From Fluviicola chungangensis (GTDB taxonomy: Bacteria; Bacteroidota; Bacteroidia; Flavobacteriales_D; Crocinitomicaceae): DNA of 64,000 bases. The first letter of the stretch is position 1. Each line of letters starts with the position of its first letter. Shown one piece after another: positions 23,365 through 61,049 of the stretch. Under the pieces are notes generated by a model that saw only the letters and a list, made by a program, of their open reading frames with translations, was not told where the DNA came from and made no database searches. The stretch lies in NCBI RefSeq assembly GCF_007558725.1, contig NZ_VLPL01000003.1:62001-126000 (forward strand). The letters are read 5' to 3'. The position numbers and the translations under genes were made by a program.

Positions 23365-24408
23365 ATGAGGGGAGGAATTTTAATGGCACTTGCATTGTTG
23401 ACAGGCTTGTCGGCAAGGGCCCAGGATTTTCATGTGACCCAAATCCTTCAGTCTCCGAATTTGCTCAATCCGGGAGCAGTTGGAGTATATGATGGCTGGG
23501 AAAGAATTGCGATCCAACAAAGAAATCAGTGGCTGGGAGGTGCTACAACTTATATGACTACAGGCATAGCAGCAGACGCAAATTTTTTTAAGAACGACAG
23601 GAAACCAAAAGCACATTTGGGAGTCGGGGTTCAGTTTTACAATGATATCGCCGGGAGTTCGGGATATGGTTTACAAACAGGCTCTGTTGCCGTGTCAGGA
23701 ATTCTTCCTGTTGGAAATGGAAGCCAACTCTCGCTTGGTATCCAGGGAGGAGTTGGGAACCGCTCAGGAAACATGTCGCGATTGCTTTATGATTCACAGT
23801 GGAATGGGAATAATGCCTACGACCCGACGATTGTGAGCGGGGAGACTCAAAGTTTGAGTTCATTTATTTACCTGGATGCTTCTGCCGGATTGTTTTATCA
23901 GTTTGATGGTGGACAAAGTACATTTGCCCGAAACAACGATATGAAGTTCCAGGTTGGTTTTGCAGGATATCATTTGAATGCACCGGCGATGCGTTTTCGT
24001 TCGGGATCGGAAGAACAACTTGCACGAAAGTATGTGGGAATGGTGAAGTATTCGATGGATATTCCCGGAACAAAGATGGCCTTTGATGCGCAATTTGCAC
24101 AATTCGTACAAGGCGGGCATTATGAATCGATCCTGGGACTAATTCTGAGAAGACGCTTTCAGGACGGAGGTAAAATCACTGGTTTGAACCAGGACGCATT
24201 TGTTGGTTTAGGAGTTTATACACGTTTAAGAGATGCTATTTCTCCGACATTACAGGTCGATTGGAGAGGATTTCATTTCGGGGTTTCTTATGACATAACA
24301 TTATCTGCCTTGAGATACGGTTACAAAGGTGGAAGTTTGGAGTTTTCGATCAGCTATACGAATCTGAATAATGCGATATTTAAAACCAGAAGAAAAGGAT
24401 TTAGATAA
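23365..24408 (+). CDS. PorP/SprF family T9SS outer-membrane protein
   Basis: A 347-residue outer-membrane barrel of the PorP/SprF family. The N-terminal signal peptide (to ARAQ) is followed by the family signature DFHVTQILQSPNLLNPGAVG, where secreted-protein partners of this type carry YxxNPAxxG-like motifs. SprF-like proteins are needed for export or attachment of the CHU_C (type B) protein encoded next to them, as shown for SprB/SprF in Flavobacterium johnsoniae. The tandem arrangement with the 1031-residue protein strongly suggests a dedicated pair. Only 2 nt separate the genes. Confidence 0.92.
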   Translation: MRGGILMALALLTGLSARAQDFHVTQILQSPNLLNPGAVGVYDGWERIAIQQRNQWLGGATTYMTTGIAADANFFKNDRKPKAHLGVGVQFYNDIAGSSGYGLQTGSVAVSGILPVGNGSQLSLGIQGGVGNRSGNMSRLLYDSQWNGNNAYDPTIVSGETQSLSSFIYLDASAGLFYQFDGGQSTFARNNDMKFQVGFAGYHLNAPAMRFRSGSEEQLARKYVGMVKYSMDIPGTKMAFDAQFAQFVQGGHYESILGLILRRRFQDGGKITGLNQDAFVGLGVYTRLRDAISPTLQVDWRGFHFGVSYDITLSALRYGYKGGSLEFSISYTNLNNAIFKTRRKGFR

Positions 24409-24555: not shown

Positions 24556-24591
24556 GGATAAGTGCAAGCTTATCCACCATTTACCATGGTA
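24556..24591. repeat. Dispersed 36-nt double-hairpin repeat, copy 1
   Basis: It begins GGATAAG and ends CCATGGTA, and agrees at 32 of 36 positions with 59997-60032. It contains the inverted arms GGATAA/TTATCC and a second self-complementary part TACCATGGTA. Both copies sit upstream of genes on the + strand. Confidence 0.7.
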
Positions 24592-24654
24592 TCTAATTTG
24601 AATGTTTGATTTTCTATGAGTTGTTGACAATTAATTCTCAACAAACTACAACGG

Positions 24655-24713: not shown

Positions 24714-26252
24714 ATGCATATGGAAAACACAAAAAAAATTACAGGAGCTTTAATTTCAGTTTATTACAAGGATGGTTTGGAACCAATTGTGCGTAAATTG
24801 CATGAAGAGAACGTAAGTATCTACTCTACCGGTGGAACACAAACGTTTATCGAAGGATTGGGAATCCCGGTTGTCCCTGTTGAATCCATGACTTCTTATC
24901 CTGAAATTTTTGGAGGACGGGTGAAAACATTGCATCCGGCAATCTTCGGGGGAATTCTGCACAGAAGAAACCTGCAAGCTGATTTGGACCAGGCAAAACA
25001 ATTCAACATTCCGGTAATCGACCTGGTGATTGTTGATTTGTACCCTTTCGAAGAAACAGTTGCTTCGGATGCGGACCACCAATCCATCATTGAAAAGATC
25101 GATATCGGAGGGATTTCATTGATTCGTGCGGCGGCAAAAAATTACAACGACGTAGTGATCATTCCTTCCGTAAATCAATATGCAGAGTTCCTGGATATAT
25201 TGAATGCGCAGGGTGCTTCTTCAACATTGGAACAAAGAAAGCAATTTGCCAAAAAAGCCTTCATGGTTTCTTCCCATTACGATACGCACATCTTCAATTA
25301 TTTTAATGATGGGGAAGAAACTCCCGTTTTCAAACAAAGTATCCTGGAAAGTCAATCACTTCGCTACGGTGAAAATCCACATCAAAAAGGATGGTTCCAT
25401 GGCGACTTCTCGGCGATGTTCGATCAGTTGCACGGGAAAGAATTGTCTTACAACAATTTACTGGACGTAGATGCCGCAGTTCAATTAATGGCTGAATTCG
25501 AAAACAACGATCCTACATTTGCAATCCTGAAACACAATAATGCGTGTGGTTTGGCAACGCGCCCAACGTTAGCACAAGCTTATGCTGACGCACTTGCCGG
25601 AGATCCTACTTCGGCTTTCGGGGGAATTTTAATTGCCAACAGGCCAATAGATGTGGCAACGGCAAGCCTGATCAATGACCTGTTTTGTGAAGTGGTGATT
25701 GCTCCTGGATTTGATGCTGATGCAGAAGAAGTACTGAAAAGTAAAAAGAACCGTATTTTATTGGTTCAAAAGAAAGTAGCATTGCCAACGCGTCAGTTCA
25801 GAACATTGTTGAATGGCGTGTTGGAGCAGGATAAAGACATGCTTTCCGAGACAGCGGCTAATTTTGAATCCAAAACAATATCAGTTCCCACTGCGCAAGA
25901 AGTAGAAGATTTAATTTTTGCGAACAAGTTGGTTAAACATACCAAATCCAATACGATTGTTTTGGCTAAAAATGGTCAGCTGCTTGCAAGTGGAACCGGT
26001 CAAACATCTCGTGTAGATGCATTGCGTCACGCAATTGAAAAAGCAAAATCATTTGGCTTTGATTTGAAAGGAGCGGTGATGGCATCAGATGCTTTTTTCC
26101 CTTTCCCGGATTGCGTTGAAATGGCTCATCACGCAGGAATTACGGCAGTAGTTCAACCGGGTGGTTCCATTAAAGATGAATTGTCGATCGATTACTGCAA
26201 TGCAAATGGAGTTGCGATGGTGTTTACAGGGAACCGGCATTTTAAACATTGA
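24714..26252 (+). CDS. purH: Bifunctional AICAR formyltransferase / IMP cyclohydrolase
   Basis: Catalyses the last two steps of de novo IMP synthesis. The 512 residues show the N-terminal MGS-like cyclohydrolase domain (ALISVYYKDGLEPIVRKL, STGGTQTFIEGLG, SYPEIFGGRVKTLHP) and the AICAR transformylase domain (SLRYGENPHQKGW, LKHNNACGLA, DPTSAFGG). The C-terminus has ASDAFFPFPDCVEMAHHAGI and VQPGGSIKDELSI, both highly conserved. Two in-frame ATGs lie 6 nt apart (24714 and 24720); either could be used. The gene has its own promoter and is closed by a strong terminator. Together with purN at 30989 it provides formyl-transfer steps of purine synthesis. Confidence 0.96.
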   Translation: MHMENTKKITGALISVYYKDGLEPIVRKLHEENVSIYSTGGTQTFIEGLGIPVVPVESMTSYPEIFGGRVKTLHPAIFGGILHRRNLQADLDQAKQFNIPVIDLVIVDLYPFEETVASDADHQSIIEKIDIGGISLIRAAAKNYNDVVIIPSVNQYAEFLDILNAQGASSTLEQRKQFAKKAFMVSSHYDTHIFNYFNDGEETPVFKQSILESQSLRYGENPHQKGWFHGDFSAMFDQLHGKELSYNNLLDVDAAVQLMAEFENNDPTFAILKHNNACGLATRPTLAQAYADALAGDPTSAFGGILIANRPIDVATASLINDLFCEVVIAPGFDADAEEVLKSKKNRILLVQKKVALPTRQFRTLLNGVLEQDKDMLSETAANFESKTISVPTAQEVEDLIFANKLVKHTKSNTIVLAKNGQLLASGTGQTSRVDALRHAIEKAKSFGFDLKGAVMASDAFFPFPDCVEMAHHAGITAVVQPGGSIKDELSIDYCNANGVAMVFTGNRHFKH

Positions 26253-57495: not shown

Positions 57496-59036
57496 CAGAA
57501 GTCGAAATAATGGTTATTAAGCGCGGTTCGTATCCCGATATTGAACCAGTAAGATTGACCATCCTGTAGAGGATTCTTCACCATACGCAATTTAGCGGAA
57601 CCAAAGATTTCCAGGCCGTACAGGTGATTGAAGTTGTAACCCAGTTCGACGTTTTCGTAGAATACCTGTTGGTTCAAGCCGGTGTTCAATGCATAAAGCG
57701 GCAATAATTGTCGGTAATTCGCTGATTGGCTGATATAATAATTAGTCGAAGAACTAACGAACAAGTGATTCCATTCTCCCCGAAGCCTGAATACGATTTC
57801 ATCCACTCCGGCTCCTATCGGATGACCGACCGGCAGATTGAAGTTGCTGTAATGAATGCGCGGATTGGAAGCTTGGTACGCATTTGCTGATGTATGATTG
57901 TATTCCAGGTGAACCAGGTAGTTGTGTGATTGAAAAGGCCAGTAACGGATCCCAATCTGACCGACATCACTGGATTTGGAATAAGGATTTCTCCCGTATT
58001 GACCGTATAAAAGCATTTTCCAGATCCGCCAGTTAAAGTCCAAACCCAGATAAGCATAGCTTTTTCCATTGATTCCTTCCTGAATGGTCGCCGCTCCCGG
58101 AATGGGAATGTAAAATCCGCCTTCAACCGCTTGTTTTTGAATGGAATCTCCCCGGCTCCATGTTCCGCCTTCAATTAACCCGATGCGAAGGTGCTTCGTT
58201 GGCTGGAAGTAAATCGAAGCGAGACTTAAGGCTTTTCGCTCATACAGGGCTTCACCATTCGTGGAATAAGGAATGCGAAGCATATTCAGTCCCTGCATTC
58301 GTATGAGTTGGAAGTTCCATTTCTCACCCAGGGAATAATTGATTCGGAAATTCATGGTGGGAAGTGAATTATCGGAGTAAAGAACCGACCGGTAACCACT
58401 TCCGATAAAAATCGGGTTGTTTCCAACCGAAACCGACAGGCTTTTCAGCACTTGCCATTGCACCATTCCGGTTGCATAAGCATAATCAAAACCATTCGTT
58501 TTGAAGGGCTTTGTACGAGCACTTCCCGGGATTACCGCATTTGATTGCGTATAACTTGAATCCCCACTGTTCGGATAGAATTCTCCCCGATTAGTGACGT
58601 ATTGCTGTGCATAATAAGGTAAAACAGCCTGATTTTCATAGAAAGAACCCGAGAAAAAAACCTTGTTTTTGATGCTTCCTTCCATGCGAAGACCACGGAC
58701 ATTTAAGTATTGGCGGATACTGGTATCTCCACGTTCCACGCCCATTTGAATATCTAAAATCGGGCTGACCCAAATCGCACCGTTATTCTTTACAAGTTGG
58801 ATTAATTCCCGTTGGTAAATATAGTAGCCCACATTGGAATAGCGTGCTTTCTGCTCTTTTGCCGTGTTATAATAATTGACCTCGTTATCGGTCACCGGAA
58901 AAACAGGTACAAAGGATGAATCGGTAAAAAAAGAAACATCCCTGAAATAGGATTCGATGGGTAGTACGCGGTATTCCTGTCCAAAAACGGGATAACTCAA
59001 AAACAATGAAATAACACTATATACCAGTACTCTCAT
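57495..59036 (-). CDS. Outer-membrane barrel, Wzi/RemB-like (first of two)
   Basis: A 513-residue barrel (signal peptide to YPVFGQ). It carries SVGNNPIFIGSGYRSVLYSDN and aromatic strand ends such as LNNHYFDF at the C-terminus. It follows cysQ with a 4-nt overlap, so cysQ and both barrels form a minus-strand operon. Presumed role in surface-polysaccharide attachment or gliding; the substrate is unknown. Confidence 0.75.
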   Translation of the reverse strand: MRVLVYSVISLFLSYPVFGQEYRVLPIESYFRDVSFFTDSSFVPVFPVTDNEVNYYNTAKEQKARYSNVGYYIYQRELIQLVKNNGAIWVSPILDIQMGVERGDTSIRQYLNVRGLRMEGSIKNKVFFSGSFYENQAVLPYYAQQYVTNRGEFYPNSGDSSYTQSNAVIPGSARTKPFKTNGFDYAYATGMVQWQVLKSLSVSVGNNPIFIGSGYRSVLYSDNSLPTMNFRINYSLGEKWNFQLIRMQGLNMLRIPYSTNGEALYERKALSLASIYFQPTKHLRIGLIEGGTWSRGDSIQKQAVEGGFYIPIPGAATIQEGINGKSYAYLGLDFNWRIWKMLLYGQYGRNPYSKSSDVGQIGIRYWPFQSHNYLVHLEYNHTSANAYQASNPRIHYSNFNLPVGHPIGAGVDEIVFRLRGEWNHLFVSSSTNYYISQSANYRQLLPLYALNTGLNQQVFYENVELGYNFNHLYGLEIFGSAKLRMVKNPLQDGQSYWFNIGIRTALNNHYFDF

Positions 59037-59851
59037 TTCTTCAATCGCTCAAGAATTGGCTTGGTTTTTACAATGAAATAAGGGTTGTACAAATTTTCTT
59101 TATTGTACTTAAGCGGTTGGTTCGTTTCGGCATGTACCACCATTCCTCCCAGGGCCTCAATAATTGCTTGTCCGGCTGCAATATCCCATTCCATTGTAGG
59201 TGCAAATCTCGGATAAACATCTGCTTTTCCCAAGGCAAGGTCGAAAAATTTTAAAGCACTTCCCATTTTAATGAATTCCACCTCGCCGAATAATTCCCGC
59301 ATGGATTCGTTGAACTTCAAATCACTTCCGGAATGATGAGACCTGCTTCCTGCAATTTTAAGTGGTGTGGAAATTGTGGTTTTAGGTTGAACTACTTTCC
59401 AGCGTTCAGCTTGATCTATCTGATCAAAATCCAGTAGGGACACACCAATCTCCTTTCCACCGAAAATAATCTCCTTGTTTGCAGGAGAAACAATGAATCC
59501 CAAAACAGGTTGGTTTTGGTAGACCAATGCAATACAAACGGCAAATTCCCCATTTTTTTTGATGAATTCTTTCGTACCGTCCAAGGGATCAACGATCCAG
59601 ACATGTTCCCACGTTTTTCGTGTCTCAAACGGAGAGTTGATACTCTCTTCCATGATGGTCGGGATTCCCGTTTTTTCCAATGCCAGTTTAATAATTGAAT
59701 TGGACAACAAGTCTGCTTTGGTTACGGGACTTCCGTCATGCTTCATGGATGGATCGAAATCTGTTTCATACACTTCCATAATAGCCTCGGAAGCTTCCAC
59801 ACAAGCTTTCAAAACGATGGGGATAAAAGACTGAATTTCTGCGCTAATCAT
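59033..59851 (-). CDS. cysQ: 3'(2'),5'-bisphosphate nucleotidase CysQ
   Basis: Hydrolyses PAP formed during sulfate assimilation or sulfation. The 272 residues of an inositol-monophosphatase-like fold show the metal-binding motifs: an early EES Glu (TIMEESI), WIVDPLDGTKEFIKKNGEF, and the later WDIAAGQAIIEALGG. Leads the operon with two barrel genes. The intergenic region above it contains a short direct repeat. Confidence 0.94.
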   Translation of the reverse strand: MISAEIQSFIPIVLKACVEASEAIMEVYETDFDPSMKHDGSPVTKADLLSNSIIKLALEKTGIPTIMEESINSPFETRKTWEHVWIVDPLDGTKEFIKKNGEFAVCIALVYQNQPVLGFIVSPANKEIIFGGKEIGVSLLDFDQIDQAERWKVVQPKTTISTPLKIAGSRSHHSGSDLKFNESMRELFGEVEFIKMGSALKFFDLALGKADVYPRFAPTMEWDIAAGQAIIEALGGMVVHAETNQPLKYNKENLYNPYFIVKTKPILERLKK

Positions 59852-59996
59852 TGGCTAAAAATAAGAAAAAGCGATAGCTTGAAGACTAAATTACGACAAA
59901 CGTTAGTGCGAAAAGTGATTCGGGATAAGAAAAGCGATAGCTTTTGATGACTAAAATGCGATCCTTTGCGTGCCGGATTCGTGTGAAAGTAATTTT

Positions 59997-60032
59997 GGAT
60001 AAGAGTAAGATTATCCACCAGTTACCATGGTA
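59997..60032. repeat. Dispersed 36-nt double-hairpin repeat, copy 2
   Basis: 32 of 36 positions match 24556-24591. It keeps the GGATAA/TTATCC arms and the TTACCATGGTAA palindrome. Confidence 0.7.
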
Positions 60033-60099
60033 ATTAATAACTAATTCCTTTTAGCACTATTTCTTCTTCAAATTTAACCGCCAGTTAATTTCCTATCTG

Positions 60100-60128: not shown

Positions 60129-61049
60129 ATGAATAGAAATAAAACATTCAAGCAGATTCCTGATTTTAAACTTTCTCCCACAGTTGACAAAGTGGGTGTG
60201 GAGGAACGCGTAGCCCGGTTTCAAACACGAAGTATCAAGAACGAATCAAAAGTTCAGGGCCTGAAAATGGTGCTGAATATGATTGATTTAACTACTCTGG
60301 AAGGAAAAGACACGCCCGGGAAGGTTCGCCAGTTGTGTTATAAAGCACAGCATTTGCATGATTTGCAGGAAGGGTTGCCAACAGTCGCTGCTGTTTGTGT
60401 TTATCCGACCATGGTTGCAGAAGCAAAAAAAGCATTGGGAGATTCCGGAATCAAAGTAGCTTCTGTTTCAACTGCATTTCCAAGTGGACAATCCACTAGG
60501 GAAATCAAGTTATTGGATACGCAGTTTGCAGTTGATAATGGAGCAGATGAAATTGATATGGTAATCTCACGTGGGAAGTTCTTGGCGGGAGATTACAATT
60601 TTGTATTCGATGAAATTGCAGCCATTAAGGAAGTGTGTGGTAAAGCTCGCTTGAAGGTGATTTTTGAAACCGGAGAGCTGGCTTCTTTGGATCAGGTGCG
60701 CAGAGCAAGTGATATTGCCATGTATGCCGGAGCAGATTTTATTAAGACATCTACAGGTAAAATTCAACCTGCCGCAACGATGCAGGTAACTTACACCATG
60801 TTGTGTGCAATCAGGGATTTTTACCGGAAAACGGGAGTAAAAGTGGGGATGAAACCGGCCGGTGGAATTTCTTCTTCCAAACTGGCATTGCACAATTTGG
60901 TTATGGTAAAAGAAACGCTTGGAAACGAATGGTTGAATAACGAATGGTTTCGGTTCGGCGCAAGTTCACTGGCGAATGATGTGTTGATGCAATTGGTAAA
61001 ACAAGAAACAGGACATTATCAAAGTGCCGATTATTTTTCGATAGATTAA
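60129..61049 (+). CDS. deoC: Deoxyribose-phosphate aldolase
   Basis: Splits deoxyribose 5-phosphate to acetaldehyde and glyceraldehyde 3-phosphate in deoxynucleoside catabolism. The 306 residues carry MIDLTTLEGKDTP, VAAVCVYPTMV, the Schiff-base lysine K206 in DFIKTSTGKIQPAAT, and GVKVGMKPAGGISS. It heads an operon with two aldehyde dehydrogenases, a combination that would oxidise the acetaldehyde product. The N-terminus is about 50 residues longer than that of E. coli DeoC, as in other class members of this size. Confidence 0.95.
   Translation: MNRNKTFKQIPDFKLSPTVDKVGVEERVARFQTRSIKNESKVQGLKMVLNMIDLTTLEGKDTPGKVRQLCYKAQHLHDLQEGLPTVAAVCVYPTMVAEAKKALGDSGIKVASVSTAFPSGQSTREIKLLDTQFAVDNGADEIDMVISRGKFLAGDYNFVFDEIAAIKEVCGKARLKVIFETGELASLDQVRRASDIAMYAGADFIKTSTGKIQPAATMQVTYTMLCAIRDFYRKTGVKVGMKPAGGISSSKLALHNLVMVKETLGNEWLNNEWFRFGASSLANDVLMQLVKQETGHYQSADYFSID

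What the first reader, a model, noticed from the sequence alone, without database searches (positions are those of the whole stretch)
24556..24591. 36-nt double-hairpin repeat shared with 59997-60032
Two copies 35 kb apart agree at 32 of 36 positions and have two neighbouring palindromes (GGATAA/TTATCC and TTACCATGGTAA). Both are in front of metabolic genes (purH, deoC) of nucleotide metabolism. It may be a regulator-binding site or a REP-like element; the shared nucleotide-metabolism context makes the regulator option worth testing.
Basis: partly seen in the sequence, partly recalled or inferred. Interest (0 to 1): 0.55.

Follow-up and report, generated by a model that had tools for sequence, protein, structure and literature searches.

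The report
Dispersed paired-palindrome DNA sites in Fluviicola
A short DNA signal made of two palindromes sits between genes at 17 places in this freshwater bacterium's chromosome, stays at the same places in related species while its letters change within each genome, and mostly occurs in species that carry one particular small DNA-binding-protein gene, so it looks like a genome-wide docking site rather than a switch for nucleotide genes.

Summary
The 36-nt repeat is real: 32 of 36 positions agree; about 1e-5 such pairs are expected by chance. It is one of 17 copies in the genome. Each copy is a 20-bp dyad (GGATAA-8-TTATCC), a 6-bp spacer and a 10-bp dyad (TACC-NN-GGTA), with dyad centres 21 bp apart. 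A nucleotide-gene operator is not supported: 2 of 17 neighbourhoods hold nucleotide genes, and 7 of 17 copies lie between converging genes. It does not behave like a decaying REP either: 16 of 17 copies have a counterpart beside an orthologous gene in another Fluviicola genome although the flanks have diverged, and the spacer is alike within most genomes but not between orthologous sites. Two further genomes carry the same architecture with other left dyads (GGTC...ACC). The one site shared by seven genomes abuts the 3' end of a ~100-aa ArsR-fold gene. Close orthologs of that gene were found in seven genomes, all with elements; two element-free genomes lack gene and site at the syntenic locus. 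One genome (5 copies, gene not found) is an exception. Best reading: dispersed binding sites for a trans-acting complex, probably including that protein. Binding and purpose are inferred. Main rival: a REP-like repeat homogenised by gene conversion.

The parts
24556..24591 (+). composite element, copy 1 (GGATAAGTGCAAGCTTATCC-ACCATT-TACCATGGTA)
   Evidence: one of 17 copies; same place in G001 (with a 1-base deletion in the right dyad), G008 and G013
24556..24575 (.). left dyad, GGATAA-8-TTATCC
24581..24592 (.). right dyad, TTACC-AT-GGTAT
59997..60032 (+). composite element, copy 2 (GGATAAGAGTAAGATTATCC-ACCAGT-TACCATGGTA)
   Evidence: same place in G008 and G013, and as a degraded remnant in G006
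59997..60016 (.). left dyad, copy 2
60022..60033 (.). right dyad TTACCATGGTAA, copy 2
23365..24408 (+). neighbour on the 5' side of copy 1: PorP/SprF-family gene
24714..26252 (+). neighbour on the 3' side of copy 1: purH (AICARFT/IMPCHase)
59033..59851 (-). neighbour on the 5' side of copy 2: inositol monophosphatase-family gene (divergent)
60129..61049 (+). neighbour on the 3' side of copy 2: DeoC-family aldolase

Best explanation
The element is a double-stranded, two-dyad protein-docking site scattered in gaps between genes of Fluviicola chromosomes. Two protein dimers are inferred to sit side by side on one face of the DNA, because the dyad centres are 21 bp (two helical turns) apart. The left dyad would be read by a factor whose specificity changes between species, the right dyad (TACC-NN-GGTA) by a constant one. 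The best candidate for the left-dyad reader is the ~100-aa ArsR-fold winged-helix protein whose gene end carries the only site shared by seven genomes. Shown here: architecture, copy number, conservation of position, species-wise likeness of the spacer, and co-occurrence with that gene. Inferred: that this protein binds, that two proteins bind, and that the purpose is genome-wide (nucleoid or domain organisation, or a global control) rather than local control of each neighbour.
For: 17 of 17 copies found in G000 with the 24-nt left part alone are the same 17 that carry the right dyad at the same spacing. All 26 copies found in four sister genomes with the 24-nt pattern were found again with the full architecture. 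The centre of the right dyad is M-K in 74 of 86 copies, a choice symmetric under strand exchange. 16 of 17 G000 sites lie beside a gene whose ortholog also lies beside a site, on the same side and strand, in another species; for 12 of 17 both flanking genes adjoin the site in another species. Over 18 orthologous groups the arms are 88-99% identical against 33-42% in the 5' flank. The spacer (positions 21-24) is 1.00 alike within G000, 0.90 in G003, 0.84 in G013, 0.78 in G008, but 0.52 between orthologous sites and 0.53 between other sites of different species. Between the GGATAA and GGTC types the left dyad changes on both sides together (A:T to T:A in 8 of 32 rows, the 8 rows of the GGTC types; 0 of 500 shuffles reach the covariation score, 32 rows chosen from 86). 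Close orthologs of the ArsR-fold gene: 7 of 14 genus genomes, all 7 with elements; of the other 7, one (G005) has intact elements and one (G006) a degraded copy (Fisher p 0.005, not corrected for ancestry). G007 and G002 keep the neighbouring PadR gene but lack gene and site there. The G011 ortholog (51% identical; NQHIKV where the other six have NHHVxL in the presumed recognition helix) goes with a different left dyad and the same right dyad. The protein is predicted as a winged helix of the ArsR kind (pLDDT 87.8; PagR, ArsR, SqrR, HlyU, CzrA among the best matches).
Against: No binding was measured. G005 has 5 copies (GGTCAAACTGCAATTTGACC type) but no close ortholog was found in its 270 contigs. 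G009 has the gene and only one site. In G011 only the gene-linked site is at a place shared with the other genomes' sites; the other 21 are elsewhere, as expected also of a mobile repeat. In G001 the spacer is no more alike within the genome (0.52) than between genomes, and at the left dyad's centre (positions 8-14) within-genome likeness exceeds the between-genome level (0.59-0.63) only in G000 (0.90) and G003 (0.74). Arms of non-orthologous sites are as alike as those of orthologous ones, because all share the motif that was searched for. In one search the numbers of pairs changed on both sides and of further pair types do not exceed the shuffles (258 and 494 of 500). The promoter of the wHTH gene shows no element-like dyad by eye. 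The recognition-helix argument rests on two types only.
Confidence: 0.5

Rival explanations
1. A REP-like, non-coding mobile or formerly mobile repeat family, spread in bursts by an unidentified enzyme and homogenised within each genome by gene conversion; the ArsR-fold gene merely hosts the oldest copy.
For: The 17 copies in G000 lie between genes (one overlaps the last 6 bases of a gene) although about 92% of the window is coding by a simple ORF caller; palindromic and short; alike within most genomes; lineage-specific places in G011, with clusters of two or three copies; a pair in 85-nt inverted repeats about 3.9 kb apart in G003.
Against: No PF01797 Y1 transposase in G000 and no constant GTAG tag; the 24-nt search of G000 gives 15 exact copies, 2 with one mismatch and none with 2 or 3; sites kept at orthologous places while flanks diverged; neither dyad occurs alone as an exact match in 224 kb of own sequence or in 400 kb of sampled G013.
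Confidence: 0.3
2. A classical operator of a nucleotide- or nucleoside-responsive regulator in front of purH and deoC.
For: Both window copies precede nucleotide genes, and the purH place has a copy in G001 (damaged), G008 and G013, the deoC place in G008, G013 and, degraded, G006.
Against: The other 15 neighbourhoods are mixed (PriA, LysRS, GlyRS, Der, PdxJ, IspH, RplU, RplT, Tpx and others; named by my reading of the translations); 7 of 17 are between convergent genes.
Confidence: 0.04
3. A replication- or segregation-related site (DnaA box pair, parS- or matS-like).
For: In 4 of 5 copies in G003 the left dyad reads as two inverted perfect DnaA boxes TTATCCACA (recalled consensus; letters).
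Against: No other genome has both boxes perfect; G008 copies mostly read TTATCCTTC, and G011 and G005 (GGTC types) have no such box at the element. In G013 the 12 sites are spread round the chromosome and 6 of 12 point with replication, by my own count with the origin taken at the skew switch near 1.7 Mb (positions, skew).
Confidence: 0.06
4. An RNA element (double hairpin) acting in transcripts.
For: Three of five typed examples fold better than shuffles (z -2.8, -2.1, -2.7; the last is not letter-exact).
Against: The G011 type does not fold better (z +1.67) and one G000-type example only weakly (z -1.1, not letter-exact); no Rfam match at the gathering score in the window; several copies lie between a terminator-like run and the next promoter-like region, by eye; the right dyad has a 2-nt centre, too tight for a hairpin loop.
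Confidence: 0.05
5. A crossover site for a site-specific recombinase: the ACC-NN-GGT core resembles Hin/Gin-type serine invertase sites (recalled).
For: Two-base variable centre flanked by inverted arms; an inverted pair flanks about 3.9 kb in G003.
Against: Sites differ in their centre dinucleotide, which would hinder recombination between them; gene order at the sites is conserved. Recombinase genes were not searched for.
Confidence: 0.05

Closest known systems
REP / BIME elements with RAYT transposases (REPtrons)
   Same: Short, extragenic, palindromic, dispersed, species-specific sequence, with a protein gene that carries a copy
   Different: No Y1/HUH transposase in G000, no constant GTAG tag, two dyads at fixed 21-bp centre spacing, low copy number (1-22 per genome), conservation at orthologous places; the linked gene is an ArsR-fold DNA-binding protein
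CGTC-type REPs without a dedicated transposase (PMC3733652, abstract and passages seen)
   Same: Palindromic repeats with no known mobilising enzyme
   Different: Two separate dyads; CGTC tag not seen in the copies listed
ArsR/SmtB regulators and their operators
   Same: The linked protein has this fold and weak family hits
   Different: Below the curated family cut-offs; the site lies at the gene's 3' end and at distant places, also between converging genes, and none was seen in the gene's own promoter
Dispersed chromosome-organising sites (matS, parS, Noc and SlmA sites; recalled)
   Same: Around a dozen conserved short palindromic sites per chromosome, between genes
   Different: No clear clustering near the skew switches in G013; no known partner protein

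Membership tests
REP elements | extragenic, palindromic, short (14-40 nt), repeated (definition in PMC12306157, passages seen) | tested here: met
REP elements | transcribed / forms RNA stem-loops | tested here: inconclusive
   three of five typed examples fold better than shuffles, the G011 type does not; no RNA data
RAYT-linked (GTAG) REP | Y1 tyrosine transposase in the genome | tested here: not met
   PF01797: 0 matches in G000; 5 of 14 control genomes ring. Other genomes not tested
RAYT-linked (GTAG) REP | constant GTAG tetranucleotide at the foot of the palindrome | tested here: not met
   none of the 86 copies listed has GTAG on the given strand; the other strand has it only where position 26 is C (13 of 86)
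MITE | target-site duplication and empty sites | not tested
   no element-free orthologous gap of a dispersed site was found among the sequence held
Operator of a nucleotide-metabolism regulator | enrichment before nucleotide genes | tested here: not met
   2 of 17 neighbourhoods (names outside the window by my reading)
Operator of a nucleotide-metabolism regulator | placement in promoters | tested here: not met
   7 of 17 convergent, 7 tandem, 3 divergent; window gaps of 36 nt or more: 9 convergent, 15 tandem, 9 divergent
ArsR/SmtB family (for the linked protein) | winged-helix fold of the family | tested here: met
   model pLDDT 87.8; Z up to 13.0, rmsd 2.4 over 92 residues, to SqrR, with HlyU, CzrA and PagR next
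ArsR/SmtB family (for the linked protein) | score above the curated cut-off | tested here: not met
   G000 member: NF033788 24.5 bits against 55; Pfam HTH_20 12.9 against 27
DnaA box pair | two TTATCCACA boxes (recalled) | tested here: not met
   both boxes perfect only in G003, 4 of 5 copies; not so in the other genomes' copies

The most novel reading that the evidence does not exclude
A two-part genome-marking system: an ArsR-fold protein and dispersed composite sites that co-evolve, in which the protein's gene carries the founding site and each lineage re-spreads and re-homogenises its own version. It would be an analogue of REP/RAYT without a transposase, or a new class of bacterial chromosome-organising site.
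Probability: 0.3. Interest if true: 0.75.

Novelty: new variant of a known kind. Interest (0 to 1): 0.55.

Why it matters
If the sites are bound genome-wide by a small ArsR-fold protein, this is a dispersed-site system with a natural series of specificity changes (GGATAA...TTATCC, GGTCAAA...TTTGACC and GGTC...TTTACC types), suited to studying how a DNA-binding protein and a dozen or more sites change together. If they are instead a repeat, they show concerted change of extragenic elements at fixed places without a known transposase. A cultured carrier seems to exist: the G013 chromosome (4,633,577 bases) has the length published for the Fluviicola taffensis type strain RW262.

Tried and rejected
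Two of my patterns had the wrong spacing (one base short in the left dyad, no hits; one base short in the spacer, four hits, of which one, G001:C3:176419, is the copy with a 1-base deletion and the others were not counted). The six GGATTAATCCGAATTTCTCC rows (G002, G003 twice, G009, G013 twice), all identical and with 3 mismatches, were taken as a conserved unrelated stretch (probably rRNA; not checked) and dropped. Two 2-mismatch G011 rows (C1:130706, C7:117798) and the 2-mismatch rows of G004, G009, G010 and G012 (two) were dropped as chance. From, apart from the G011 and G005 rows confirmed, the rows were dropped because no left dyad stands before them (for those with loci). G001's purH copy (1-base deletion) and the degraded G006 deoC copy were left out of the 86-row counts.

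RAYT/Y1 transposase: none in G000. Virus or plasmid origin: 0 exact matches to two element patterns in viral contigs; one match to a bare 20-nt left dyad (L057) lacks the right dyad. No relative of the wHTH protein in viral contigs, plasmids or phages. wHTH in G005: the two ArsR-like genes hit there are 25-35% identical to the orthologs and have no right dyad in the stretch fetched. DnaA-box idea: see rivals. A tree of PadR plus its neighbour protein for nine genomes was unresolved except G009+G002, so the number of independent losses is not known. G002 and G004 are 84% and 83% complete and were not, so absence there is weaker. Arms other than the GGATAA and GGTC types were not searched for, except through the right half with a CCACCA spacer in seven genomes.

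Literature: the listings of searches showed no paper on these elements (PMC open-licence full text only; 75, 86 and 87 list only 15 of 245, 10 of 46 and 12 of 415). Seen: listings, plus passages of PMC3733652, PMC12306157 and PMC3236050. No paper was read whole.

Full report
Observation. The whole genome (4.27 Mb, 19 contigs) holds 17 copies with the full architecture at up to 3 mismatches and none of the reversed control pattern. A search with the left 24 nt alone gives the same 17 places, 15 exact and 2 with one mismatch, and none with 2 or 3. In 224 kb of own-genome sequence held, exact matches to either dyad occur only within the composite, and none occurs in 400 kb of sampled G013.

Anatomy. 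Each copy is a 20-bp left dyad GGATAA-8-TTATCC, a 6-bp spacer, and a 10-bp right dyad TACC-NN-GGTA. The dyad centres are 21 bp apart, which would place both on one face of B-DNA (inference). The spacing is fixed in the full pattern, but it was also met where it was not asked for: 17 of 17 copies and 26 of 26 sister-genome copies (all re-found). Across 86 copies the right centre is M-K in 74, so each half-site mostly reads TACC followed by A or C on its own strand. This symmetry and the two-base centre suit a double-stranded protein site better than an RNA hairpin; three of five typed examples fold better than shuffles, the G011 type does not. The first 6 or so AT-rich bases after GGTA are also above background.

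Where the copies lie. In G000, 7 of 17 lie between converging genes, 7 in tandem gaps and 3 in divergent gaps; gaps of 36 nt or more in the window are 9, 15 and 9. By a simple ORF caller none lies inside a gene; one overlaps the last 6 bases of a gene. Neighbours, read from translations (my reading except the Pfam results), are mixed; purH and deoC are the only nucleotide genes that I recognised. In G013, whose single contig has the length published for Fluviicola taffensis RW262, 12 sites are spread round the chromosome without clear clustering at the GC-skew switches.

Relatives. The strict 24-nt form was found only in the same genus: 0 of 135 genomes from other genera; other forms were not sought there. 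In the genus (14 genomes) the copy numbers are G000 17, G001 12, G003 5, G008 13, G009 1, G013 12, and one degraded copy in G006 at deoC, 61 rows in all, 57 of them with 0-1 mismatches where 3 were allowed. G011 carries 22 copies with a left dyad GGTC...TTTACC (one copy TTGACC), and G005 5 copies of GGTCAAACTGCAATTTGACC type, with the same spacer length and right dyad. G002, G004, G007, G010 and G012 gave no convincing copy with the patterns used; G002 and G004 are about 84% complete and were not. Loci of these genomes found by name are Fluviicola and Flavobacteriales MAGs and one record titled Glaciecola amylolytica.

Conservation and concerted change. 16 of 17 G000 sites lie beside a gene whose ortholog also adjoins a site, on the same side and strand, in another species; the exception is the site in L116. 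For 12 of 17 both flanking genes adjoin the site in another species, among them purH (G001, G008, G013) and deoC (G006, G008, G013). Over 18 orthologous groups (16 with G000) ungapped identity is 0.98 and 0.88 in the left-dyad arms, 0.99 and 0.95 in TACC and GGTA, 0.33-0.42 in the 5' flank and 0.52 then 0.37 in the 3' flank. The arms are as alike between non-orthologous sites, since all share the searched motif; what the comparison shows is that sites stay put and stay intact while flanks diverge. The spacer's first four bases are alike at 1.00 within G000, 0.90 in G003, 0.84 in G013, 0.78 in G008 and 0.52 in G001, against 0.52 between orthologous sites and 0.53 between other sites of different species. 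At the left dyad's centre the within-genome excess is seen only in G000 (0.90) and G003 (0.74); G001, G008 and G013 (0.62-0.63) equal the orthologous level (0.63). So letters are partly homogenised within genomes at fixed places; a changing binding protein or gene conversion would both do this.

The linked gene. The only site present in all six GGATAA-type genomes, and also in G011, abuts the 3' end of a gene for a ~100-aa protein. Its close orthologs (E below 1e-27) are in G000, G001, G003, G008, G009, G011 and G013 and in none of the other 82 genomes of that search (next best E 4.8e-10). The dispersed copies in G011 were looked for, and found, because the gene and a variant site had been found there. 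G007 and G002 keep the divergent PadR gene but lack gene and site there. Fisher p is 0.005 for 14 genomes with G005 counted as contrary; shared ancestry makes this optimistic. The protein is predicted as a winged helix of the ArsR kind, below curated family cut-offs. Six orthologs with NHH in the presumed recognition helix go with GGATAA arms; the G011 ortholog with NQH goes with GGTC arms.

Judgement. The nucleotide operator is not supported. The data fit dispersed docking sites for a trans-acting complex that probably includes the ArsR-fold protein; binding and function were not tested here. A REP-like repeat homogenised by gene conversion, with the gene as bystander, is the main rival: in G011 only the gene-linked copy is at a place shared with the other genomes' sites (a few weak hits between repetitive neighbours aside), and G005 has copies without a detected gene.

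Noticed in passing
L087 5263-5347 and 9225-9309 (G003): Two copies of the element lie in 85-nt inverted repeats (98% complementary) about 3.9 kb apart, around a transaldolase-like gene (my reading) and others: a recent duplication or an invertible segment.
   Followed up: partly
L206, L209, L210, L212, L216, L217 (G011): In G011 the elements often come in clusters of two or three, 57-113 nt apart.
   Followed up: partly
L260 (CP034120.1): A record titled Glaciecola amylolytica THG-3.7 carries the Fluviicola gene and elements and lies in the same genus here; the name looks wrong.
   Followed up: no
G013 contig C1 (L262-L281): dnaA is at position 454, but the sampled GC skew changes sign near 1.7 Mb and between 3.9 and 4.4 Mb, so the origin may not be beside dnaA.
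   Followed up: partly
L149 (about 1850-1910) and L254 (about 1450-1510): The PadR gene next to the ArsR-fold gene has a repeated dyad of its own, TACCTAA-TTAGGTA, in its promoter, different from the element.
   Followed up: no
window 59860-59896 and 59924-59961: An imperfect direct repeat of about 37 nt (ataagaaaa(a)gcgatagctt...gactaaa...gcga-like) lies in the gap between the inositol-monophosphatase gene and the deoC element.
   Followed up: no
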